A stretch of DNA of 64,000 nucleotides from Natrinema saccharevitans. GTDB lineage: Archaea; Halobacteriota; Halobacteria; Halobacteriales; Natrialbaceae. The notes below the pieces were generated by a model. The model made no database searches. It saw only the letters and a list, made by a program, of their open reading frames with translations, and was not told the origin of the DNA. Of the stretch, positions 1 to 46,248 are shown piece by piece. The position numbers and the translations under genes were made by a program. The stretch covers positions 2,108,001-2,172,000 of the forward strand of contig NZ_LWLN01000001.1 in assembly GCF_001953745.1 (NCBI RefSeq), given 5' to 3'. Position 1 is the first letter of the stretch, and the number at the start of each line of letters is the position of its first letter.

Positions 1-595
1 TGGCGTCGAGATCGAGCGCGATCGGCGAGGCGTCGGTCTCGTAGGTCCACCGGAGCGACCCCGCGGAGTCGAACGCGTAGACGGTGCTGTGCCACTGCCG
101 GGTCTCGCCGTCGCGTTCGTACCGCCGCGCGGCGGCGTAGAGCCGTTCGTTGCCGTCCGCGTCGGTCCCCGTCTCGAGCGCCACGACGTAGGGAAGGTAG
201 AAGACGGAGTCCTCGATTGCCGCACCGACGTCGTCGGCAGTGTCGTAGCGCCACCGGCGTTCACCCGTCGCGGCGTCGTAAGCCGCGATCGTTCCCGTCT
301 CGCCGCGACCGGCGACGACGATCGTCTCGTCGTCTCCGGGTCCGTCGCCTCCGAGCGACGCGATCCCGACCGCGTGATCGGGGTGGTCGGCCGTCCATCG
401 GGGCTCGAGCGAGTCGACCTCGCGGGCGGTAACGGTGCCGTCCCACTCGCCGGTGACGACGAGGTCGCCCGACTCGGCGAGCCCGACCGCCGAGCGGGTC
501 CACATGTGGCGACTGCGGGCGGGGTCGATCTCGCCCAGCGGGACGGTCCGAAAGTCGAGACCGTCCTCGCGTTCCGTGTCGACAGTTCCGGCCAT
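1..595 (-). CDS. PQQ-like beta-propeller protein, C-terminus beyond the window edge
   Basis: The last gene of the long cobalamin operon; about 198 codons are visible and the gene runs off the left edge. The ATG at 595 lies just after the stop of the DUF3209 gene (598), so the two are translationally close. The visible part shows repeated blades typical of PQQ/WD40-like propellers: a stretch reading GDLVVTGEWDGTVTARE, then TIAAYDAATGERRWRYD and a similar unit near residue 180 (STVYAFDSAGSLRWTYE). There is no signal peptide, so it is probably cytoplasmic. Its position after cbiX and DUF3209 suggests an accessory role in the cobalt/corrin pathway, but nothing in the sequence gives a reaction. 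Propeller fold fairly sure, role unknown. Confidence 0.75.
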   Translation of the reverse strand, partial: MAGTVDTEREDGLDFRTVPLGEIDPARSRHMWTRSAVGLAESGDLVVTGEWDGTVTAREVDSLEPRWTADHPDHAVGIASLGGDGPGDDETIVVAGRGETGTIAAYDAATGERRWRYDTADDVGAAIEDSVFYLPYVVALETGTDADGNERLYAAARRYERDGETRQWHSTVYAFDSAGSLRWTYETDASPIALDLDA

Positions 596-597
596 CG

Positions 598-969
598 TTA
601 CTCCTCTACCGGGAAGGTCTCGTGGAGGGTGTCGTGGGCGTCGCCGAGCCCGTCGACGATGCTCGATCCCTGCGTGCGAAGCCGCTGGATGGCCCGCTCG
701 GCGTTGCGGACCTCGAGCAACCGACCCCGAGTATAATCGAATTCGGGGTCCTCGCTGTCCAGTTCGGCGACCTCTTGCTCGAGATCGACCAGCGCCGCGT
801 CGAGGTGGCGTTCGATCTCCGCGAGGCTGTCGGCCTCCGCGAGGCCCTCGATGGGGCCCTCGAGGTGTCCCTCGAGTTCCTTCTCCGCGTGGTCGCGAGT
901 ACTGTCGTCCCCGACGCCGAGGACGTTCATCAGTCCGAGTCGTAGTGCTTCGATTTCGTGGCAGCTCAT
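598..969 (-). CDS. DUF3209 family protein of the cobalamin cluster
   Basis: A 123-residue acidic protein beginning MSCHEIEALRLGLMNVLG. It matches my memory of the DUF3209 family, which is largely restricted to haloarchaea and found beside cbiX. It is predicted mostly helical, with a long charged middle (about residues 25-95), and has a single cysteine followed by histidine at positions 3-4 (C3, H4) that could bind a metal. It sits 59 bases after the cbiX/ferredoxin fusion and 2 bases before the propeller gene, so it is almost certainly co-transcribed. The function is unknown; conserved context suggests a helper of cobalt chelation or storage, which is inference. Confidence 0.75.
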   Translation of the reverse strand: MSCHEIEALRLGLMNVLGVGDDSTRDHAEKELEGHLEGPIEGLAEADSLAEIERHLDAALVDLEQEVAELDSEDPEFDYTRGRLLEVRNAERAIQRLRTQGSSIVDGLGDAHDTLHETFPVEE

Positions 970-1028: not shown

Positions 1029-2261
1029 CTACAGCGTCTGATCGACGAGGTCGCTGACGATGCGGTCCCGGTCTAAGTGGTCCGAGACGATCCGTTCGGC
1101 GTCGCCGTCGTCGACGTCACCGTACCAGATCCCGTCCGGGTAGACGGCGACCATCGGCCCGTCGCCACAGCGGCCGAGACAGGACGACCGCGTGATGCGG
1201 GCGTCGCAGTGGTCCGAATCCCGGACCTCCTGTCGAAGCCGCTCGAGGACGGCCGGCGACCCCATCTTCGCGCAGGTCTGGTTGGTACAGACCGCGACGT
1301 GTTTCTCCGGCGCGTCGTGGCTGTGGGGTTCGTCGTCGACGTCGTCGCGATCGGCGTGGGCCTCCTGGTGAGCTAGCGCCCGCAACATGGCGCGAGCGCC
1401 GCCGACATCCTCCTCGTAGCCCTCGAGGTCGACCTTGTACTTGCAGGTGTCACAGGACATCTCGACGCTGTCGGTCCGGGCTTCCTCCCAGCGGTCGGCG
1501 AAGACGTCCAGCAGCCGGGAGTCGGTCCCGAGCGGGTCGCCGGCCATCGCGTCGACGTAGGGGTAGTCGGAGTCGAAGTCGGCGGTCCAGTCCCGGACCC
1601 GCTGGGTGAGGACGCCGTCGCCGAGCATATAGGGGAGGACGACGACCGCGTCGGGCCGGTGCTTCGAGAGCCCGTGGAGCGTCTCCTCGAGGGTCGGCTC
1701 GGTGACGCCGATGAACGAGGCCTCAACGCGGTCGAACTCGCGCCCCTCGTAGAGCAGTCGCGCGAGCTTGTGGACGTCGCCGTTGGCGTCCGGATCGCTC
1801 GAGCCCCGGCCGCAGACGACGACGGCCACGTCGCCGTCCGCACGGTCGACGCCGAGTTCGGCCTCGACAGCCGCGGCGCGGTCGTCCAGCAGGTCGAGGA
1901 TCGCGGGATGAACTCCCAGATGAGAGCCGTTGTCGATCTCTACGTCGTGTTCGGCCCGGGCCTGCTCGATCGCCAGCGGCACGTCGTTCTTGACGTGGCT
2001 CGCGGCGAACAGCGAGCAGTGGACGACCGTCACCCGCTCGGCGACGGGCGAGAGTCCCGCGAAGGCCTCGTCGATCGCCGGCTCCGCGAGTTCGAGGAAC
2101 GCGGCGTCGACCGGGATTCCCAGTCGGGACTCGAGGTCGGCGGCCAGCTCGCGGACCTGTTCGTTGGACTTCTCGCGCCTGGAGCCGTGGCCGATCAGGA
2201 GGACGGCCTCGTCGTCGAAGCCGGGTGCGGGAGCGGCCGTGGTGTCGTCTGGTGTGCTCAT
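1029..2261 (-). CDS. cbiX: Sirohydrochlorin cobaltochelatase CbiX fused to a [2Fe-2S] ferredoxin domain
   Basis: This 410-residue protein inserts cobalt into sirohydrochlorin, the first committed step of the early-cobalt (anaerobic-type) B12 route. The N-terminal CbiX/SirB half starts with LLIGHGSRREKSNEQV (catalytic histidine near residue 25) and is followed by a second chelatase lobe up to about residue 260. A CDTC pair lies near residue 274. Residues 320-410 form a thioredoxin-like [2Fe-2S] ferredoxin domain with C325, C330, C361 and C365. Family members usually end after the chelatase part, so the Fe-S tail is an elaboration known from haloarchaea. The gene begins one base after the stop of the LAGLIDADG-like gene, in the main cob operon. 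Confidence 0.92.
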   Translation of the reverse strand: MSTPDDTTAAPAPGFDDEAVLLIGHGSRREKSNEQVRELAADLESRLGIPVDAAFLELAEPAIDEAFAGLSPVAERVTVVHCSLFAASHVKNDVPLAIEQARAEHDVEIDNGSHLGVHPAILDLLDDRAAAVEAELGVDRADGDVAVVVCGRGSSDPDANGDVHKLARLLYEGREFDRVEASFIGVTEPTLEETLHGLSKHRPDAVVVLPYMLGDGVLTQRVRDWTADFDSDYPYVDAMAGDPLGTDSRLLDVFADRWEEARTDSVEMSCDTCKYKVDLEGYEEDVGGARAMLRALAHQEAHADRDDVDDEPHSHDAPEKHVAVCTNQTCAKMGSPAVLERLRQEVRDSDHCDARITRSSCLGRCGDGPMVAVYPDGIWYGDVDDGDAERIVSDHLDRDRIVSDLVDQTL

Positions 2262-2262
2262 A

Positions 2263-2967
2263 TTACTCGTCGTAGGCGTCGGCCTGCTCGAGACTGCGCT
2301 CTAACTTGCGCCGGCGACTCGGCGCGAAGAGGCCGGTCTCCTCGCAGTCCTCGTAGAGCCACGTGCCGAAGGCGGGCGCGGCGGCGTCGTCGACGCCGAA
2401 CCAGTGGCCGCCCGAGGAGGTTTCGGATAGCTCGCCGAAGGGCGCATCGACGGGACAGTCGGCGATCAACTCCTGTGCGAACGCGAGCAGGTCCCGATCG
2501 TCGTGGACGAACGAGATCCCGACGGTGCCGCTCGAGGACTTGAAGCAGACGGTGCCACAGCCCTCGAGCAGGCCCCGGAGCAGTTCGCGATCGTAGTCGG
2601 CGAACGCGCCGAAGCGGTAGTTGCCGCGGCCGTCGACGGGCAGTCCGAGCGCGCCGCTGCGGCCGAGCAGGCCGTCCTCGCCCTCGATCGTCAGCACGTA
2701 CTCCTCCTCCGTCCGCGTGATCGACGTGTCGTGGGCGTACTCGCGGCTGGTCGTCTCGCGCTCGAGGTCGCCGCCGGCGACGGCGGCCAGCACCTGTGCG
2801 GACGCCTCGTCGTTGGCGACGACCTCGATCCGGTCGTCGGTAACGTCGCCACTGCCGGCGACGTGGCCCCAGAAGTACGCCGTGGCCGCGTGGCCGGCCA
2901 GCGGGTCCGACGGGACCGAAACCTCGAGGGCGTCGTCGCCGCCGTCGGCGGATCGGGCGTCGCTCAT
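2263..2967 (-). CDS. LAGLIDADG-like protein of the cobalamin operon, nuclease residues lost
   Basis: A 234-residue conserved haloarchaeal protein usually labelled only as a cobalamin biosynthesis protein. Two segments read like the paired LAGLIDADG motifs of homing endonucleases: TAYFWGHVAGSGDV (about residues 29-42) and LLRGLLEGCGTV (about 134-145). Each is followed by a beta strand and a helix, as in that fold. The acidic residue that binds metal in true nucleases is serine in the first motif and cysteine in the second, so DNA cleavage is unlikely. The gene overlaps the ferredoxin gene by four bases and abuts cbiX, which ties it to cobalt insertion. A DNA-binding regulator or a protein scaffold are both possible; the fold call is inference from motifs. 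Confidence 0.6.
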   Translation of the reverse strand: MSDARSADGGDDALEVSVPSDPLAGHAATAYFWGHVAGSGDVTDDRIEVVANDEASAQVLAAVAGGDLERETTSREYAHDTSITRTEEEYVLTIEGEDGLLGRSGALGLPVDGRGNYRFGAFADYDRELLRGLLEGCGTVCFKSSSGTVGISFVHDDRDLLAFAQELIADCPVDAPFGELSETSSGGHWFGVDDAAAPAFGTWLYEDCEETGLFAPSRRRKLERSLEQADAYDE

Positions 2968-3230
2968 TCGCCCACCTCCTCGACGACGATGGCGTCGGTC
3001 GGACAGGCCGCGGCGGCCTGCTGGGCCTCGTCGATACGGTCGTCGTCGAACGTCGCGACGACGCGTTCGGCGTCGTCGATGACCTCGCCCTCGCAGTCGT
3101 AGACCGGATCCGCGGTCGGATCGATCGTCGCGAGGCCGTCCTCGCCCTCGATAAAGCGCGGGTCGCGGGTCAGGCAGGCGAAGATGCCGTCGCAGGCGTC
3201 TTTCTCGATGGTGACTTCGTATCGTGGCAT
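2964..3230 (-). CDS. Small ferredoxin of the cob operon
   Basis: An 88-residue ferredoxin. The first cluster motif is C13-x5-C19 (ACDGIFAC), with a later C76-P (ACPTDAI) and an extra C46. The spacing resembles single-cluster 3Fe-4S/4Fe-4S ferredoxins rather than classic two-cluster CxxCxxCxxxCP types. The central insertion is acidic, as usual in haloarchaea. It overlaps the LAGLIDADG-like gene by four bases (stop and start share ATGA) and follows cbiH by 16 bases. It probably carries electrons for corrin ring chemistry or for the Fe-S chelatase; the partner is inferred from position. No second CxxCxxC motif is present. Confidence 0.85.
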   Translation of the reverse strand: MPRYEVTIEKDACDGIFACLTRDPRFIEGEDGLATIDPTADPVYDCEGEVIDDAERVVATFDDDRIDEAQQAAAACPTDAIVVEEVGE

Positions 3231-3246: not shown

Positions 3247-4275
3247 TCAGTAGTCGTACTTCGTCTCGTAGCCCCGGGGTGTGACCATCCGGTCGTCCCA
3301 GACGTAGGTGTCCTCGGTGCCGACGACGATCGTCGTCGTCATGTCGACGATCTCGCTCTCGCCGAGGTTCTCGAGCTCGGCGAGTTCGGTGATCAGCACC
3401 TGCTCGTCCTCGCGGCCCGCGCCGTGGACGATGCCGACGGGCGTATCGGGCCCGCGGTGGGTCAGCAGGATCTCGCAGGCCTTCTCGAAGTTCTCGCGGC
3501 GCTTGCGGCTCCAGGGGTTGTAGATGGTGATCGTGAAGTTCTCGCTCGCGACCGAGTGCAGTCGGGACTCGATCTCGGGCATCGGCACGAGGTGGTCCGA
3601 CAGCGAGACCGAGACGGTGTCGTTGACCAGCGGCGCGCCCAGGCGCGCGGCGCAGGACTGCGCTGCTGGGACGCCCGGCACGACCTCGAAGTCGACCATC
3701 GAGGCCGTCGCGCCTTTGGACTCTAAGATCTCGAGGGCCAGCCCCGCGAGCGCGTAGACGTTCGGGTCGCCGCTGCCGACGATGGCGACGTCGTTGCCCG
3801 CCAGCGCGCGGTCGATCGACTCCTCGGTGCGGGAGACTTCGCCGCACATCGGCGTGTCGTAGATGTCTTCGGCCTCGTCGGTGATCTCGTCCGGAATCAG
3901 CTCGATGTAGGTCGTGTAGCCGACGATGTGGTCGGCCTCGAGCAGCGCCGTCTTCGCGCGGTCGGTCATCCCCTCGGGGTGACCGGGACCGAGGCCGACG
4001 GCGATCAGTTGGCCCGGCTCGGCGTCGAAGTCGTCGGCCGTCGCGCCGACCTCCTGCTCGTTCGAACTCCCGTCGTCCGAACTCGAGGCACCACAGTTCG
4101 AGGACGACGAGGAACTCGAGGACCCACCGCATTTCGACCCGCTCGAGTCGTCGGTGCTACTGGACGCGCCGCACTTCGAGCCGGAACTCGAGGTGTCGGT
4201 ACTCGCGTCGCTCGTCGATGCGCCACACTTGGAAGTCGATTCGTCGTCAGCGTCCGCGTTGGTGTCCGTGCTCAT
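3247..4275 (-). CDS. cbiH: Cobalt-factor III C17-methyltransferase CbiH with a Cys-Gly-Ser repeat tail
   Basis: A 342-residue SAM-dependent methyltransferase that methylates C17 and drives ring contraction in the corrin pathway. The methyltransferase fold begins near residue 90 with GLGPGHP (94-100) and contains the family motif SGDPNVYALAG. Before it lies an unusual ~75-residue Ser/Asp/Thr-rich extension with four Cys-Gly units at C17, C35, C49 and C61 (KCGAS, KCGAS, KCGGS, NCGAS), not part of the normal CbiH domain. A second CbiH copy lies 18 bases upstream, so the operon carries a tandem pair. The tail could bind cobalt or another soft metal; that is inference. Start chosen at the first ATG after the upstream stop. 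Confidence 0.9.
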   Translation of the reverse strand: MSTDTNADADDESTSKCGASTSDASTDTSSSGSKCGASSSTDDSSGSKCGGSSSSSSSSNCGASSSDDGSSNEQEVGATADDFDAEPGQLIAVGLGPGHPEGMTDRAKTALLEADHIVGYTTYIELIPDEITDEAEDIYDTPMCGEVSRTEESIDRALAGNDVAIVGSGDPNVYALAGLALEILESKGATASMVDFEVVPGVPAAQSCAARLGAPLVNDTVSVSLSDHLVPMPEIESRLHSVASENFTITIYNPWSRKRRENFEKACEILLTHRGPDTPVGIVHGAGREDEQVLITELAELENLGESEIVDMTTTIVVGTEDTYVWDDRMVTPRGYETKYDY

Positions 4276-4293: not shown

Positions 4294-5172
4294 TCAGAAG
4301 TCGTCGACGTCACGCCCGCCGCGCGGGGTGACGAGGTACGTTCGGTCGTCGTTGCGCCAGGTCTCGGTCTCGTGGGTGCCGATGATCAGCGAGGTGCCCA
4401 TCCCCGACACCTTGTCGTCGTGGTCGGCGGCCTCGCCCAGCGTCGTGATGAACTGGCTCTCGCCGTTGCGGCCGGCGTCCGCGCGGCCAGCGTCGTTGAC
4501 GATCGCCACGTAGGCGTCGTCGGTCCGCTCCTCGCGGACGATCTCGACCGCCTGCTCGTAGTTGCGCCAGCAGTTATAGAGGACGATCACGAAGTCCGAG
4601 ATTGCCGCGGCGCGCAGTTTCTCCTCGATCTCGTCCCAGCCGCGCCACTTGTCCGACAGCGAGACCGTACAGAAGTCGTTACACAGCGGCGCGCCGACGT
4701 TGGCCGAGCCGCCAAGCGCCGCGGTGAGTCCGGGCACGATCTCGATCGGAATGTCCGTCGCGTCCTCTTCCTCGGCCATCTTGAAGATGAGGTCGGACTT
4801 GCCGTAGACCGACGGATCGCCGCCGGAAACGTGAGCCACGTCCTTTCCTTCGCGGACGTATTCGAACGCCGCGCGGGCGAGTTCGATCTGGCGGCCCATC
4901 GTCGAGCGGACGATCTCCTGCTCGAAGCCATCGTCTCGGATCGCGATACCGTCCTCGTTGGTTTCATCTTCCGGCAGTAGGGTGCCGTCGTCCCGCAGGA
5001 ACTCCTGATAGAGGCTCGAGGCGATGACCACGTCCGCGGTCTCGATGACCTCTTTGGCCCGCTCGGTCATGTGGTCGGGAAGCCCGGGACCGATACCGAC
5101 GACGTAGAGGGTGCCGTGGTCGTCGGGGGTGCCGCCGGCCGTCGCGTCGATGGACTCGGCGTCGGAACTCAT
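4294..5172 (-). CDS. cbiH: Second CbiH/CobJ-type C17-methyltransferase
   Basis: A 292-residue paralogue of the neighbouring CbiH. It starts at ATG 5172, four bases inside the end of cbiG (overlapping ATGA), which decides the start over the longer open frame. It shows the SAM-binding motif VVGIGPGLPDHMTERAKEV near residue 22, the SGGDPSVYGKSDLIF motif, and VPGLTAALGGSANVGAPL of the substrate pocket. It lacks the Cys-Gly repeat tail. Tandem C17-methyltransferase paralogues are known from haloarchaeal cob clusters; whether both act on the same intermediate, or one has another position or redox form as substrate, cannot be read from sequence. Operon position between cbiG and the other cbiH is consistent with ring contraction. 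Confidence 0.9.
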   Translation of the reverse strand: MSSDAESIDATAGGTPDDHGTLYVVGIGPGLPDHMTERAKEVIETADVVIASSLYQEFLRDDGTLLPEDETNEDGIAIRDDGFEQEIVRSTMGRQIELARAAFEYVREGKDVAHVSGGDPSVYGKSDLIFKMAEEEDATDIPIEIVPGLTAALGGSANVGAPLCNDFCTVSLSDKWRGWDEIEEKLRAAAISDFVIVLYNCWRNYEQAVEIVREERTDDAYVAIVNDAGRADAGRNGESQFITTLGEAADHDDKVSGMGTSLIIGTHETETWRNDDRTYLVTPRGGRDVDDF

Positions 5173-6161
5173 CGGCCGATCGCCACCGTGACCTCGTTCT
5201 CGTAGCTGATCTTCTCGAGGACCAGCTCCTGTTCGGCACCGCCTGCGATCGCGGCGGCCTCGGAGACGCCGGGCCAGCCGATCAGCTCCTTCGACTTCGA
5301 GGGCGTCGGCCCCTCGTTCGCGAGCAGCGTCTCCTTGTCGAAGGCGACCACGCCGAGATCGAGTTCCTGCGCAGCCTCGAGCAGGCCCGCCTCGTCCTCC
5401 TTCCGGGTCGCGGTGCCGACGAACTCTACGTCGTCGAAGTCGTAGTCGGTCCGCTCGAGGGCTTGCTCCCACGCGGCGAGGAAGGCGTCCTTGCTGGCCC
5501 CCGAAACGCTACCCGTCCCGAGGACGACGCCGTCGTCTTTGTTCCGTTTGAGCACCGTCACGTCGTCGCCGACGAGGACGGCCTTCGGCCCGTCGAGTCG
5601 CGCGACGGGCCCGAGTTCGTCGTCCAGCACGGCGAGGTTGGTTTTGACCGTCGAGTCGCCGTTGACGACGTGGGCGTCCATCGCCTTGGCCTTGGATTCG
5701 ACGCCCTGTTTGCCCGCAGCTTCCGAGGCCGTGGTCATCGCCGGGACGGCACCCATCGTCGCCAGATCCTGTGCGACCTGGTTCGCGCCGTGGTGGCCGC
5801 CGGTGATCGGGATGGCCCACGTCAACTCCTCGTCGACCACGCAGATCGCGGGGTCGTCCCACTTGTCGTCTAACAGGTGGGCGGTCTTGCGCATCGCGAT
5901 CCCCGAGGCCATCAGCCCGATGAAACAGTCGTACTCGCCCCAGTGCTCCTCGAAGACGTCGCCGTGGTACTCGACGATGTCGATCGCCTCGTAGCGATCG
6001 CCGATCTCCGCCTTGATCTCCTCGGCGGTGTCCAGCTTCCGCCCGAAGGAGACGATCGCGATCTCCTCGGCGACCTCGCCGTCCGAGTCGGCCGTCGAAC
6101 AGTGGCCGCCATCGGAGTCCGATTCGTTCGTCGTGTCCGTGTTCTCAGTTCCGGAACTCAT
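5169..6161 (-). CDS. cbiG: Cobalamin biosynthesis protein CbiG (cobalt-precorrin-5A hydrolase)
   Basis: A 330-residue CbiG, which opens the delta-lactone of cobalt-precorrin-5A and releases the C20 fragment as acetaldehyde. It shows the three-part family layout: N-terminal domain (IAIVSFGRKLDTAEEIK onward, about 35-120), the middle segment with GLMASGIAMRKTAHLL and ITGGHHGANQVA, and the C-terminal domain with TGSVSGASKDAF and FVGTATRKEDEAGL. The first 33 residues are an acidic Ser/Asp-rich extension with one cysteine. A 201-base gap separates it from cbiF upstream and carries an AT-rich promoter, so it can start its own transcript. It overlaps the next gene by four bases. Confidence 0.93.
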   Translation of the reverse strand: MSSGTENTDTTNESDSDGGHCSTADSDGEVAEEIAIVSFGRKLDTAEEIKAEIGDRYEAIDIVEYHGDVFEEHWGEYDCFIGLMASGIAMRKTAHLLDDKWDDPAICVVDEELTWAIPITGGHHGANQVAQDLATMGAVPAMTTASEAAGKQGVESKAKAMDAHVVNGDSTVKTNLAVLDDELGPVARLDGPKAVLVGDDVTVLKRNKDDGVVLGTGSVSGASKDAFLAAWEQALERTDYDFDDVEFVGTATRKEDEAGLLEAAQELDLGVVAFDKETLLANEGPTPSKSKELIGWPGVSEAAAIAGGAEQELVLEKISYENEVTVAIGR

Positions 6162-6175
6162 TGTGTACTCTCTCT

Positions 6176-6188
6176 CATATCGATATTG
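6176..6188 (-). promoter_or_regulatory. Internal promoter in front of cbiG
   Basis: An AT-rich block (ATATCGATAT with flanking CAATAT on the minus strand) stands 15-27 bases before the cbiG ATG in an otherwise GC-rich 201-base gap. It resembles the TATA box of a leaderless haloarchaeal transcript. It would allow cbiG-cbiH-cbiH-ferredoxin-cbiX and onward to be transcribed separately from cbiT-cbiL-cbiF. The rest of the gap (6189-6362) holds no supportable gene. Confidence 0.5.
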
Positions 6189-6362
6189 TCCCGTCCACGC
6201 TTTCCGCTCCCGTCCAATCCACCGCCCGGGTGGGACTGAAAGGGGCTGCCGCGCTCGGTCCGGTAAGGCGACGCAAGGACCGCAGCGGAGCGAGGACCAC
6301 AGCGAGCCGCAACCGGTCGAGCGCGGCAGGGGCTTTCATCGTGTTCGCGGTACCATCGCATC

Positions 6363-7259
6363 TCAGTCATCACTAGCCTCCGTTTCGGCCGAGTTTTCGG
6401 AAGGCCCGCGATCCGCCCAGTCGCCGTAGAGGAAGGATCGCTCGTAGCCCGCGCCGGTCACCGCGTCGCCGATGACGACCAGCGCCGAGGCGCGGTAGCC
6501 CGCCTCCTCGACCTTGTCCGCAATCGTCCCGATATCGCCGACGATCACGTCCTCGTCCGGCCACGAGGCGTGGTAGATCACCGCGACCGGCGTCTCGGGG
6601 TCGTGGCCGTCCTCGAGCAGGCGATCCATCGTGTCGCGAACGGCGTGGGTCCCGAGGTAGATACAGGTCGTCACGTCGCCCATCTCGACGAACTCGGAGA
6701 TGTGGTCCTCCTCCGGGGTCAGGGTCTTGCCCTGTGGTCGGGTGAACGCGACGTGGTTCGAGACCTCGTTGAGCGTCAGTTGGGTCCGCAGCGTCGCGCT
6801 GGCCGCGAACGCCGACGTGACGCCGGGCACGAAGTAGGTCGGGACGCCCTCGTGTTCTAAGGCGTCCATCTGCTCGAGCGCCGCGCCGTAGATGGCGGGG
6901 TCGCCGCTGTGCAGCCGAACGACGTCGTCGCCGTCCTCGTAGGCGTCCCGCATCAGCGGGATCAGCTCCTCGAGATCTTTCCCGACGGAGTTCACCAGCT
7001 CGGCGTGGCCGCAGTACTCGTCCAGGAGTTCGCTGTTGACCAGCGAGCCCGCGTGGACGACGAGATCGGCTTCCTCGAGGAGTTCCTTCCCGGCGACGGT
7101 CAGCAGCCGCGGGTTGCCGGGGCCGGCGCCGACGAAGGGGATCCCCTTCTGGTCGTCGCCGGCGCTGTGGTCGAAGATCCGGTCGTCCAGCTCCTCGCGG
7201 CGGCGCTCGCCTTCGGAGTCGATCGCGTCCTGGGGATCGTTCCCCGCGTCGTCGGTCAT
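6363..7259 (-). CDS. cbiF: Cobalt-precorrin-4 C11-methyltransferase CbiF
   Basis: A 298-residue SAM-dependent methyltransferase acting at C11 of cobalt-precorrin-4. The SAM motif VGAGPGNPRLLTVAG starts at about residue 43, followed by LHSGDPAIYGAALEQMDAL and VPGVTSAFAASATLRTQ, all diagnostic of CbiF/CobM. The first ~38 residues are a charged extension. The start at ATG 7259 overlaps the cbiL stop by four bases, so the longer upstream open frame is not used. The C-terminal tail (about 275-298) is acidic and Ser-rich. Second gene after cbiT-cbiL in the operon. Confidence 0.94.
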   Translation of the reverse strand: MTDDAGNDPQDAIDSEGERRREELDDRIFDHSAGDDQKGIPFVGAGPGNPRLLTVAGKELLEEADLVVHAGSLVNSELLDEYCGHAELVNSVGKDLEELIPLMRDAYEDGDDVVRLHSGDPAIYGAALEQMDALEHEGVPTYFVPGVTSAFAASATLRTQLTLNEVSNHVAFTRPQGKTLTPEEDHISEFVEMGDVTTCIYLGTHAVRDTMDRLLEDGHDPETPVAVIYHASWPDEDVIVGDIGTIADKVEEAGYRASALVVIGDAVTGAGYERSFLYGDWADRGPSENSAETEASDD

Positions 7260-8068
7260 CGCTTCCCTCCGCGATAGCCGCCGCAGTCGCCGCCCGCACG
7301 GCCCTCGGCGCGCTCGAGGGCGGCCAGTTCGTCGTCGGCGAGTTCGCGACCGCCGTCGGAGCGCAGCTCCGAGCCGGTACTGTCGGTCTCGAACGCCGCC
7401 GTCGCCTGCTCGACCTCGAGGTCTTCCTTCTCGGCGTAGGCGAGCGTGTAGTAGTCGCGTTCGTCGATGTCGGCGGGGTCGTCGGTGACGATCGTGTCGC
7501 CCTGTTCCATGAACAGCCGGCGGCCGTAGGTCACGTCGTAGCCGGCCTCGACGAGGCCCTCGTGGGTCGCCGGCGCGTCGGTGACCTTGAACAGGATCAT
7601 CCGGTCCGGTCCCGTCGGGCTGTGGCCCGAGGCGGCCTCTCGCAAGGAGAGCCCCGCACCGGCCTCGATCTCGACGCCCATCGCGGTCGCGAAGGCCGTC
7701 ACGGCGCTGACGCCGGGGACGATCTCCAACTCGACCTCGGGGTGGAACGCGTCGATCGTCCGGCGCAGGTGGCCAAACGTCGAGTAGACGTTGGGATCGC
7801 CCAGCGTCACGAAGGCGACGTCGCCGTCGCGGGCGTTCGGGGCGATCTCCGCGGCGGCCTCCTTCCAGGCCGCCCGGAGCTTCTCCTCGTCTTTCGTCAT
7901 CGGGAAATCGAGGTCCCCGATCTTCGACTCGGCGACGTGATTCAAGGCGACGGTCCGGGAGAGCCGGCCCGGCGAGTAGACCACGTCGGCGTCCTCGAGG
8001 ACCGCTTTCCCGCGGACGGTCACGAGGTCGGCCTCGCCGGGACCGAGTCCGACGCCGTAGAGAGTCAT
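7256..8068 (-). CDS. cbiL: Cobalt-factor II C20-methyltransferase CbiL
   Basis: A 270-residue methyltransferase that adds the C20 methyl group to cobalt-factor II. It begins directly with the SAM-binding motif GVGLGPGEADLVTVRG, then TLGDPNVYSTFGHLRRTI and VPGVSAVTAFATAMG, the standard CbiL/CobI signature set. The C-terminus (about 225-270) is a low-complexity tail rich in Gly, Glu and Arg, ending GGYRGGKR, which is longer than typical. It overlaps cbiT upstream and cbiF downstream by four bases each, so the three genes are tightly coupled in translation. Confidence 0.94.
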   Translation of the reverse strand: MTLYGVGLGPGEADLVTVRGKAVLEDADVVYSPGRLSRTVALNHVAESKIGDLDFPMTKDEEKLRAAWKEAAAEIAPNARDGDVAFVTLGDPNVYSTFGHLRRTIDAFHPEVELEIVPGVSAVTAFATAMGVEIEAGAGLSLREAASGHSPTGPDRMILFKVTDAPATHEGLVEAGYDVTYGRRLFMEQGDTIVTDDPADIDERDYYTLAYAEKEDLEVEQATAAFETDSTGSELRSDGGRELADDELAALERAEGRAGGDCGGYRGGKR

Positions 8069-8691
8069 CGCTGGCTCCCTCCGTCAGCGTCGCCGCTCGC
8101 CTCACCGCCGTCTGCAGCGACTGTCTCACCGTCGTCGTCGGGCGTCGCGCTCCCGACAAGCATGTACACCGGGTTCTCCGAATTGAAACTCGTCGCACCG
8201 GCGAGTTCGTAACCGTGGCTCACCTGGAACTGGATTACCTCCTCGAGAATATCGCGCTCGCGGAAGGCCTGCGTCGCTCGGCCAGCCACCTCGAGTCGCG
8301 AGACGTTCATGACGACGCGATCGACCCCGGTGTCGACGGCGTGATCGAGGACGCCCTCGAAGTTCCGACTGCCGCCCAGAAACAGGGCGTCGGCGTCGTC
8401 GGGCAGGCCCTCGGGCGCTTCCGCGTTGCGCAGGTCGACGTCGGCGCGGACCGACTCCTCGTTAGCCGCGAGGTTCTGCTCGGTCGTCTCGAGGCGTTCG
8501 GGTTTCCGTTCGAGGGCGGTCACCCGCCCGGCTCGCTGTGCGGCTTCGATGGTGACGGCCCCCGTACAGGAGCCGACCTCCGCGAAGTGGTCGTCCGGCT
8601 CGAGCGCGAGCTTCGAGCCGACGACGGCCCGGACTTCCGACTTGGTCGGGCCGGCCTTCGCGTCGTGTGGAAGCGCGATAGGTGGCATCAT
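8065..8691 (-). CDS. cbiT: Cobalt-precorrin-6B C15-methyltransferase (decarboxylating) CbiT
   Basis: A 208-residue class I SAM methyltransferase and first gene of the operon. It methylates C15 and decarboxylates the C12 acetate chain. It shows TKSEVRAV near residue 16 and the glycine-rich SAM loop EVGSCTGAVTIEAA at 38-51, then the acidic residue at the end of the next strand (TALERKPERL). CbiE, its usual partner (fused as CobL in aerobic bacteria), is separate here, at 13.5-14.3 kb. The C-terminal ~30 residues form an acidic/glycine tail. Two ATGs are adjacent (MM); the first is taken. The promoter region upstream carries three inverted repeats. Confidence 0.93.
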   Translation of the reverse strand: MMPPIALPHDAKAGPTKSEVRAVVGSKLALEPDDHFAEVGSCTGAVTIEAAQRAGRVTALERKPERLETTEQNLAANEESVRADVDLRNAEAPEGLPDDADALFLGGSRNFEGVLDHAVDTGVDRVVMNVSRLEVAGRATQAFRERDILEEVIQFQVSHGYELAGATSFNSENPVYMLVGSATPDDDGETVAADGGEASGDADGGSQR

Positions 8692-8715
8692 CCGTTGGAA
8701 CAGAGCCCGCCCCTA

Positions 8716-8786
8716 AAACAATTTTGTTTGGGGTAGAACAACTGCGGTTGCCCAGGTGAGGTTGAAATAAGACAACGAGAGTTGTC
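8716..8786 (-). promoter_or_regulatory. Cob operon promoter region with three ACAA/TTGT inverted repeats
   Basis: Between cbiT and the downstream reductase gene the GC content drops and three perfect inverted repeats follow one another: AAACAA-TT-TTGTTT (8716-8729), CAAC-TGCG-GTTG (8739-8750) and GACAAC-GAGA-GTTGTC (8771-8786). All are built on ACAA/TTGT half-sites, with centres about 22 and 34 bases apart. An AT-rich TATA-like stretch (TTATTT on the minus strand, about 8766-8771) lies between the second and third. The layout looks like operators around a promoter. The regulator is not identifiable from the sequence. Confidence 0.55.
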
Positions 8787-40125: not shown

Positions 40126-40200
40126 TGGGCGCTGCAGGATTTGAACCCGCGGCAGCTTGGTCCGAAGCCAAGTACTCTGTCCAGGCTGAGCTAAGCGCCC
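40126..40200 (-). tRNA. tRNA-Arg (anticodon TCG)
   Basis: A complete 75-base cloverleaf on the minus strand. The acceptor stem pairs GGGCGCT with AGCGCCC, D-stem GCTC/GAGT, anticodon stem CTTGG/CCAAG around loop CTTCGGA (anticodon TCG, reading CGA codons), and T-arm GCGGG-TTCAAAT-CCTGC. The discriminator is A. No intron and no encoded CCA. Its 3' end is the probable integration site of the neighbouring element. Confidence 0.95.
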
Positions 40201-45546: not shown

Positions 45547-45929
45547 GGAACTCCGGGTGCGACGACCGGTCGGGACACGCTCGAGCGGCGGCGATCGATA
45601 CCTCCACGGCGCTCTCCCGACCGCGGGCCGGCCGCCGATCGGCCGTCGGTCGGACGGCAGGACTGGGATTTCATCGTTCACTCGAGTGTGAGTATTCGCA
45701 CGATATAACGCTATCTTGGCACATCATTACCCAGTTGAAAGCCATTTGTGGTGTTCGAGTGAATATATATGGTGAAAGGAAGCCTGAACTCGAGGGAACA
45801 CCACCGTCGATTCCGAAAACCGGTTCCCGACCGGTCGGAACTTCTGGGGCGTGCGTGACGAGGCCGCCGCCACGGGACTCGAGCGATGGAGACGAAAGGC
45901 CCTTAAGTTCTCACTTCCTACACGGAAGT
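45547..45929. other. Promoter region of the SRP RNA, no protein gene
   Basis: No supportable open frame. AT-rich pockets at about 45705-45770 include GAATATATATGG, which could drive an unknown small transcript. CCTTAAG at 45901-45907 is centred about 26 bases before the SRP RNA and is its likely TATA box. Confidence 0.5.
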
Positions 45930-46234
45930 GGACTAGGTCGGGCAGTTTGGCCCTGCTCGTTACCCGCGCTATGGTCATTAGCGGGGACCGAACGCCGCGG
46001 GCGTCCGGTCAGACCGACCGGGGCCCCGGGAGCCAACATGGAAGCCTCGTCCGTCGGGGACAGCGGTCCACGATGGCCGTCCGCAGGGACGACCCATCGT
46101 GGTTAGCCGGCGACAGCCCATCAGGCGCGGAAGCGAGCAGTGGACCGCCGGACACCTGTCGCTCGCCGGGTCGCGGGGTGGAGAAGGCAACCGGGATTCC
46201 CCCGGTCGGAACGCCGGGCAATCGCGGTCGTCCA
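45930..46234 (+). ncRNA. Signal recognition particle 7S RNA
   Basis: About 305 bases, close to the known haloarchaeal length. The S-domain hallmark is present: helix 8 with CATCAGGCGCGGAAGCGAGCAG (GGAA tetraloop at 46129-46132), paired with ACCTGTCGCTC further down. Helix 6/SRP19 region GTCCACGATGG...CCCATCGTGG precedes it. The 5' end GGAC (45930) pairs with GTCC (46230-46233) in helix 1, which fixes the ends. It scaffolds SRP54 and SRP19 for membrane targeting. Ends are accurate to a few bases. Confidence 0.93.
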
Positions 46235-46248
46235 CCATTCATACGCAA

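What the first reader, a model, noticed from the sequence alone, without database searches (positions are those of the whole stretch)
2263..2967. A dead LAGLIDADG-type protein built into a vitamin B12 operon
The gene between the small ferredoxin and the cbiX/ferredoxin fusion shows two LAGLIDADG-like motifs (FWGHVAGSG and LRGLLEGCG), spaced as in a two-domain homing endonuclease, but the metal-binding acid is Ser in one and Cys in the other. It overlaps its neighbours by a few bases, so it is a regular operon member and not an invader. A domesticated endonuclease fold may here serve as a regulator or scaffold for cobalt insertion.
Basis: partly seen in the sequence, partly recalled or inferred. 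Interest (0 to 1): 0.7.

Follow-up and report, generated by a model that had tools for sequence, protein, structure and literature searches.

The report
Tamed DNA-cutter fold in B12 operon
A gene in the vitamin B12 operon of salt-loving archaea encodes a protein with the fold of a selfish DNA-cutting enzyme whose cutting residues are gone; nearly every B12-making haloarchaeon keeps it beside the cobalt-inserting enzyme, so a genomic parasite's protein seems to have been adopted as a working part of vitamin B12 synthesis.

Summary
Window 2263-2967 (-) encodes 234 aa, 4 bp overlapping a small ferredoxin gene and 1 nt from cbiX-[2Fe-2S], inside a cbiT-L-F-G-H1-H2-fd-X-DUF3209 operon. AlphaFold2 (pLDDT 87) plus Foldseek/VIA give a complete two-repeat LAGLIDADG fold: WhiA Z 15.9, I-DmoI Z 14.5, PI-PfuI Z 14.2. 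A profile comparison with haloarchaeal intein endonucleases aligns both motifs in register, far above shuffled controls. The catalytic positions are Ser39 and Cys137. Motif-2 Cys is nearly universal (136/139). Motif 1 still has Asp in 47/139 relatives, so the Ser is lineage-specific. dN/dS is 0.16, and 202 of 204 carriers also have cbiG; no convincing member was found outside Halobacteria. It is therefore a domesticated, almost certainly non-cleaving homing endonuclease, known so far only as unassigned HVO_B0055 (by synteny) or 'cobalamin biosynthesis protein'. New lead: B12-making haloarchaea without it carry CbiX with a His-rich tail, while carriers almost always have CbiX with a [2Fe-2S] domain. 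This suggests a role in cobalt or redox handling at the chelatase (inferred, about 40%). WhiA-like regulation and filling the CbiD/CbiJ gaps are less likely. Function is unproven.

The parts
2263..2967 (-). CDS of the degenerate LAGLIDADG protein, 234 aa (syntenic counterpart of Haloferax volcanii HVO_B0055)
   Evidence: ORF; AF2 pLDDT 87, pTM 0.84; fold matches to WhiA, I-DmoI, PI-PfuI; family of 139 distinct sequences
2848..2877 (-). LAGLIDADG motif 1, residues 31-40 YFWGHVAGSG; catalytic position S39 (2851-2853)
   Evidence: helix 27-39 in the model; aligned with intein motif 1; D in 47/139 relatives
2554..2583 (-). LAGLIDADG motif 2, residues 129-138 LLRGLLEGCG; catalytic position C137 (2557-2559)
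   Evidence: helix 119-137 in the model; C in 136/139, R131 G132 E135 G138 invariant
2545..2547 (-). C141, invariant Cys at a position that faces DNA in I-CreI (+4 from the catalytic position; register from memory)
   Evidence: 139/139
2964..3230 (-). small ferredoxin (Fer4_15), 88 aa, 4-bp overlap with the LAGLIDADG gene
   Evidence: Pfam E 6e-14; adjacent in 93/93 loci
1029..2261 (-). cbiX cobaltochelatase with MSCDTC motif and C-terminal [2Fe-2S] thioredoxin-like ferredoxin domain (about 1083-1310)
   Evidence: Pfam CbiX E 2e-45, 2Fe-2S_thioredx E 1e-7
598..969 (-). DUF3209 protein; the CbiX-DUF3209 pair also occurs in Thermus and Leptospira
   Evidence: distribution
3247..4275 (-). cbiH2 (precorrin-3B C17-methyltransferase)
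   Evidence: NCBIfam TIGR01466 E 3e-92
4294..8691 (-). rest of the operon: cbiH1, cbiG, cbiF, cbiL, cbiT
   Evidence: ORFs, tblastn synteny across loci, CbiG_N search; names as in PMC8305020
8714..8730 (-). conserved promoter/operator element CAAACAAAATTGTTTTA just upstream of cbiT, with a second related copy at 8734-8750
   Evidence: near-identical upstream of cbiT in the aligned loci (52 rows); variant forms in operons without the LAGLIDADG gene

Best explanation
It is a haloarchaea-specific, domesticated LAGLIDADG homing endonuclease that no longer cuts DNA. SHOWN: the two-repeat LAGLIDADG fold (predicted model); loss of the motif-2 catalytic acid across the family, and in this clade of both; operon membership; purifying selection; near-strict co-occurrence with the de novo B12 pathway; constant adjacency to a small ferredoxin. 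INFERRED: it works as a non-enzymatic accessory of the early cobaltochelatase CbiX together with that ferredoxin. The concave surface that once held DNA, with its near-invariant residues (C137, C141, K143, S152, S184/S185, W189, R75, H79, R85, R131, E135), would hold a metal, tetrapyrrole or Fe-S partner and help deliver or insert cobalt. This would take over the job of the His-rich CbiX tail found in haloarchaea that lack the protein. Confidence by step: fold and descent 0.97, no nuclease activity 0.9, chelatase-side accessory role about 0.4.
For: Fold: AF2 pLDDT 87, pTM 0.84; Foldseek top 50 all LAGLIDADG proteins, WhiA 1.7e-6; VIA Z 15.9 WhiA, 14.5 I-DmoI, 14.2 PI-PfuI. Descent: profile alignment with intein endonucleases plus controls; of the 6 sub-threshold hits of the phylum search, 3 coincide with LAGLIDADG_3 inteins and 1 is a free-standing LAGLIDADG protein. 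Inactive: C137 in 136/139, never an acid. Functional gene: dN/dS 0.157 against 0.10-0.25 for neighbours; at least 15 residues invariant in 139. Pathway: 202 of 204 carriers have cbiG, 202 of 210 cbiG genomes carry it. Module: ferredoxin next door in 93/93, CbiX-2Fe2S and DUF3209 in 91/93, one of the two gaps being an assembly gap. Genomes without it: 8/8 have a His-rich-tailed CbiX; 7/8 have no adjacent ferredoxin and no DUF3209; the eighth (G079) has a His-tailed CbiX exactly in the gene's slot.
Against: The His-tail association rests on few independent events: one old split between two operon types, plus G079 and G401. G401 carries both the protein and a His-tailed CbiX. G142 carries a divergent copy away from the operon, and G360 keeps it after losing cbiX. 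No model coordinates were available to show that the conserved residues form one pocket. No binding data exist, and LAGLIDADG proteins have no precedent (to my knowledge) for tetrapyrrole or cobalt binding.
Confidence: 0.45

Rival explanations
1. A WhiA-like DNA-binding regulator of the cobalamin operon: the degenerate endonuclease still recognises DNA and controls cbiT-DUF3209 transcription.
For: Best structural match is WhiA, a known domesticated LAGLIDADG transcription factor (PMC3781837). A strongly conserved element CAAnCAMAATTGTTTTA with a second related copy lies upstream of cbiT. In G079, which lost the gene, that element carries a change (CAAACAAAATTGATTTTA).
Against: No HTH domain: residues from about 25 to 234 are taken up by the LAGLIDADG fold, and in WhiA specific binding is by the HTH (PMC3781837). 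The element, in variant form, also precedes cbiT in all five other inspected operons without the gene. The family has fewer basic residues (8.3%) than haloarchaeal intein endonucleases (10.9%) (weak).
Confidence: 0.2
2. It catalyses one of the two missing pathway steps (CbiD-type methylation EC 2.1.1.195 or CbiJ-type reduction EC 1.3.1.106), with the ferredoxin as electron donor.
For: The gaps are real: no CbiD or CbiJ in 32 genomes. PMC8305020 proposes the four unassigned cluster genes, including HVO_B0055, as candidates.
Against: Eight genomes with the pathway lack this protein and also lack CbiD and CbiJ, so it does not track the gap. The LAGLIDADG fold has no known SAM or NAD(P)H site.
Confidence: 0.12
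3. Structural scaffold or assembly factor that holds the ferredoxin, CbiX and other operon enzymes together without binding metal or corrin.
For: Constant gene order fd-LAGLIDADG-cbiX with overlapping or abutting genes.
Against: Near-invariant Cys, His, Arg and Lys on the former DNA side suggest a ligand rather than only a protein surface (positions inferred from secondary structure).
Confidence: 0.15
4. A still active or recently decayed homing endonuclease that happens to sit in the operon.
For: Motif-1 Asp is kept in 47/139 relatives.
Against: Motif-2 acid is absent in all 139; dN/dS 0.16; co-inherited with the operon, distance correlation 0.73-0.83; present at one place in most pathway genomes; no intron or intein features seen.
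Confidence: 0.02

Closest known systems
WhiA (DUF199) of Gram-positive bacteria
   Same: Domesticated LAGLIDADG fold with lost catalytic residues; best structural match (8dy7_I Z 15.9, 183 residues, 3.1 A); works alongside an Fe-S protein (WhiB; PMC4850268), as this gene neighbours a ferredoxin.
   Different: No HTH domain; archaeal; inside a metabolic operon; near-invariant Cys at motif 2; about 13-15% identity.
Haloarchaeal intein and archaeal intron LAGLIDADG endonucleases (PF14528; I-DmoI, PI-PfuI)
   Same: Two-repeat fold, both motifs in register; profile P 1e-5.
   Different: Catalytic acids replaced; not inside an intein or intron; fixed in one operon under purifying selection.
HVO_B0055 of Haloferax volcanii / 'cobalamin biosynthesis protein' of PGAP
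   Same: Same family by synteny (fd-gene-cbiX); listed as function unassigned (PMC8305020); PGAP names relatives 'cobalamin biosynthesis protein'.
   Different: No fold or origin found in print in the library searched; identity with HVO_B0055 inferred from gene order in other Haloferax (L215, L219, L221), not by reading the H. volcanii gene.
Bacillus megaterium CbiXL
   Same: CbiX with MXCXXC Fe-S motif and His-rich tail (PMC7689651) resembles the CbiX of haloarchaea that lack the LAGLIDADG protein.
   Different: The window's CbiX has a [2Fe-2S] domain and no His-rich tail, and comes with the LAGLIDADG protein and ferredoxin.

Membership tests
LAGLIDADG fold superfamily | two LAGLIDADG helices with alpha-beta-beta-alpha-beta-beta repeats | tested here: met
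   AF2 secondary structure; Foldseek and VIA matches to I-DmoI, WhiA, PI-PfuI over about 165-185 residues
LAGLIDADG fold superfamily | sequence-profile relationship to LAGLIDADG domains | tested here: met
   hhalign score 44.4 against control maximum 22.3; PF14528 in 16/37 relatives, best 2.7e-5; window protein alone gives no Pfam hit
active LAGLIDADG homing endonuclease | acidic metal ligand at the C-terminal end of each motif | tested here: not met
   S39 and C137 in the window; no acid at motif 2 in 139 relatives
active LAGLIDADG homing endonuclease | mobile, in an intron or intein, sporadic distribution | tested here: not met
   fixed in the operon, co-inherited, 202/210 pathway genomes
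[quoted passage not shown]
   model ends with helix 216-233 of the LAGLIDADG fold; no further domain, N-terminal 20 residues low confidence
WhiA | sequence-specific DNA binding | not testable with these tools
   needs purified protein
CbiD / CbiJ | match to PF01888 or PF02571 | tested here: not met
   no Pfam match for the protein; neither family in 32 genomes
cobalt or tetrapyrrole chaperone | binds cobalt, sirohydrochlorin or the chelatase | not testable with these tools
   inferred only from distribution and conserved residues

The most novel reading that the evidence does not exclude
A selfish DNA endonuclease fold was rebuilt into a cofactor-biosynthesis protein: its old DNA-binding and active-site groove now holds cobalt, a corrin precursor or an Fe-S partner, and with the ferredoxin it replaced the His-rich cobalt tail of CbiX in haloarchaea.
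Probability: 0.35. Interest if true: 0.88.

Novelty: new variant of a known kind. Interest (0 to 1): 0.66.

Why it matters
Few domesticated LAGLIDADG proteins are known (WhiA and yeast HO among them; splicing maturases are related), and those act on nucleic acids. This one is fixed in a vitamin B12 operon, kept in nearly all B12-making haloarchaea, and has lost its catalytic acids. It assigns a fold and an origin to one of the four unassigned genes of the haloarchaeal cobalamin cluster. It also turns 'what does a tamed homing endonuclease do in metabolism' into a question that a Haloferax knockout can answer. The exchange between a His-tailed CbiX and this protein plus ferredoxin points to a specific, testable step: early cobalt insertion.

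Tried and rejected
Pfam, NCBIfam and PDB sequence searches with the window protein alone: no hit; PDB profile search: none. G112 hit (2.6e-4): an antisense ORF over another gene, rejected. G066 second hit (1.9e-4, in a 2017-aa ORF): not followed. Phage and viral collections: no relative. Non-haloarchaeal members of the phylum: none convincing; only sub-threshold hits, one of them a free-standing LAGLIDADG protein. CbiD/CbiJ gap hypothesis: neither gene correlates with the protein. Gene fusions with ferredoxin or CbiX: none seen. Cobalamin riboswitch in the window: none in Rfam. Halves of the protein against each other: no internal repeat detectable by profile. The second structure job was not used.

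Full report
OBSERVATION. The ORF lies at 2263-2967 on the minus strand: ATG start, 234 aa. It overlaps the small ferredoxin gene (2964-3230) by 4 bp and is 1 nt from cbiX (1029-2261), so the reading 'overlaps its neighbours' is right on one side and nearly so on the other. The ferredoxin is Fer4_15, cbiX carries a C-terminal [2Fe-2S] thioredoxin-like ferredoxin domain, and DUF3209 follows. Upstream are cbiH2, cbiH1, cbiG, cbiF, cbiL and cbiT. The two motifs are residues 32-40 and 130-138, and the positions of the metal-binding acids are S39 and C137.

FOLD. The window protein has no Pfam, NCBIfam or PDB sequence match. AlphaFold2, with 60 sequences from the window and public genomes, gave mean pLDDT 87 and pTM 0.84, with two helix-strand-strand-helix-strand-strand repeats; the first 20 residues are poorly defined. 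Foldseek against the PDB lists only LAGLIDADG proteins in its top 50, led by WhiA (1.7e-6) and I-DmoI (2.9e-6). The structural aligner gives WhiA 8dy7_I Z 15.9 (183 residues, 3.1 A), I-DmoI Z 14.5 and PI-PfuI Z 14.2.

HOMOLOGY WITHOUT STRUCTURE. A profile of 37 diverse members (A2) was compared with haloarchaeal intein endonucleases found by PF14528. The match has P 1e-5 over 190 columns, with both motifs and the C-terminal RRxK in register. Thirty column shuffles reach 21.9, the reversed profile 17.7 and four unrelated operon families at most 22.3, against 44.4 for the real profile. PF14528 itself is seen in 16 of 37 members, best E 2.7e-5. In a phylum-wide search the sub-threshold hits included three inteins already known from PF14528 and a free-standing LAGLIDADG protein. 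The protein therefore descends from LAGLIDADG endonucleases.

IS IT DEAD? At motif 2 the acid is replaced in all 139 distinct sequences (Cys 136, then Ala, Thr, Ser). At motif 1 the state is Ser 76, Asp 47, Asn 7, Gly 6, Ala 3. On the tree these states need 11 changes. Cleavage is very unlikely, though it was not assayed. The gene itself is alive: dN/dS against close relatives is 0.157, within the range of its neighbours (0.10-0.25), and residues such as Y31, W33, G34, H79, R131, G132, E135, G138, C141, G150, S152, F190, Y205, R218 and K221 are invariant.

DISTRIBUTION. In the window's family 97 of 125 genomes match the protein and 97 have CbiG. These are the same genomes except G079 (CbiG only) and G112 (a spurious antisense hit). 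In 391 genomes of the class, 204 have the protein and 210 have CbiG; by comparing the two lists, 202 have both, 8 CbiG only, 2 the protein only (G360, with a degraded cluster, and G377, 88% complete) and 179 neither. Outside Halobacteria no convincing member was found in the phylum sample, nor in phages or viral contigs. Distances between genomes for the protein and four operon enzymes correlate at 0.73-0.83, so it travels with the operon, though it evolves faster (mean distance 0.36 against about 0.2).

WHAT IT GOES WITH. In 93 loci with enough flank the ferredoxin is adjacent in all 93, and CbiX-2Fe2S and DUF3209 in 91. One of the two gaps (L192) is a run of N; the other is G401 (L082). The eight genomes that have CbiG but lack the protein were examined one by one. 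All eight have a CbiX with a strongly His-rich tail. Seven of them have no adjacent ferredoxin, no 2Fe-2S domain on CbiX and no DUF3209 over the cut-off. The eighth, G079, has the usual operon minus this gene, with an extra His-tailed CbiX in exactly that slot. G401 has the protein and ferredoxin but a His-tailed CbiX and no DUF3209, as an intermediate would. In the CbiX tree the His-tailed forms are basal and the 2Fe-2S forms derived (midpoint rooting, several long branches). B. megaterium CbiXL also has a His-rich tail, proposed to store or deliver cobalt, and an Fe-S centre not needed for catalysis (PMC7689651). This is why I place the protein on the chelatase side. Caution: the association rests on perhaps three independent events.

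RIVAL ROLES. Regulator: WhiA is the closest fold and a transcription factor, but its specific DNA binding is by an HTH domain (PMC3781837) that is absent here. A strongly conserved element (CAAnCAMAATTGTTTTA, with a further copy 20 bp upstream) stands before cbiT across the haloarchaea. It also stands, in variant form, before cbiT in the five other inspected operons without the gene, so its main reader is probably another protein. The changed element in G079 is the one hint the other way. Gap enzyme: CbiD and CbiJ are missing in all 32 genomes tested, with or without the protein, so it does not track the gap, although PMC8305020 lists HVO_B0055 among the candidates.

KNOWN OR NEW. The gene is known as an unassigned member of the cobalamin cluster (HVO_B0055 by synteny, PMC8305020), and PGAP calls relatives 'cobalamin biosynthesis protein'. 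No paper found in the library links LAGLIDADG with cobalamin, and only one mentions the H. volcanii locus tags. The fold, the origin, the split CbiX types and the promoter element appear to be new. It works like WhiA in being a tamed endonuclease, but it is not a WhiA. Verdict: a new variant of a known kind, with an open and testable function.

Noticed in passing
window 8714-8750 (-): Conserved promoter/operator element CAAACAAAATTGTTTTA upstream of cbiT with a second related copy 20 bp further up (CAA-N6-TTG pattern); near-identical across haloarchaeal families, variant in operons without the LAGLIDADG gene. A weaker form lies before cbtB in Halobaculum (L268 1951). Probably a B12 or cobalt operator overlapping the basal promoter.
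   Followed up: partly
L067 11703-12644 (G079): Extra short CbiX with His-rich tail sits exactly where the LAGLIDADG gene is in relatives; a candidate case of replacement by an unrelated gene.
   Followed up: partly
L105 1495-2091 (G142): Divergent copy (about 34% identity) outside the cobalamin operon, between two cation-diffusion-facilitator-like transporter genes and a rhodanese-like gene (named from reading the ORFs).
   Followed up: no
L266 9894-11360 (Thermus pTT27) and L267 8808-10369 (Leptospira): The CbiX-DUF3209 pair is shared with bacteria and lacks the LAGLIDADG gene there; DUF3209 is a further unassigned B12 gene.
   Followed up: partly
window 1-592 (L299 13304-14596): PQQ-type beta-propeller protein next to DUF3209, also next to it in Haladaptatus; probably a further unassigned gene of the cobalamin cluster.
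   Followed up: no
L068 7817-9910 (G066): A PAS-domain histidine kinase-like gene (named from reading the ORF) is inserted between cbiG and cbiH1.
   Followed up: no
L261 4503-5276 (G360): LAGLIDADG gene intact beside remnants of cbiH2 in a genome without cbiG, cbiX or DUF3209; recent loss of the pathway or a second role.
   Followed up: no
window 45926-46237 and 40126-40200: Archaeal SRP RNA (+) and a tRNA (-); no cobalamin riboswitch in the window.
   Followed up: no
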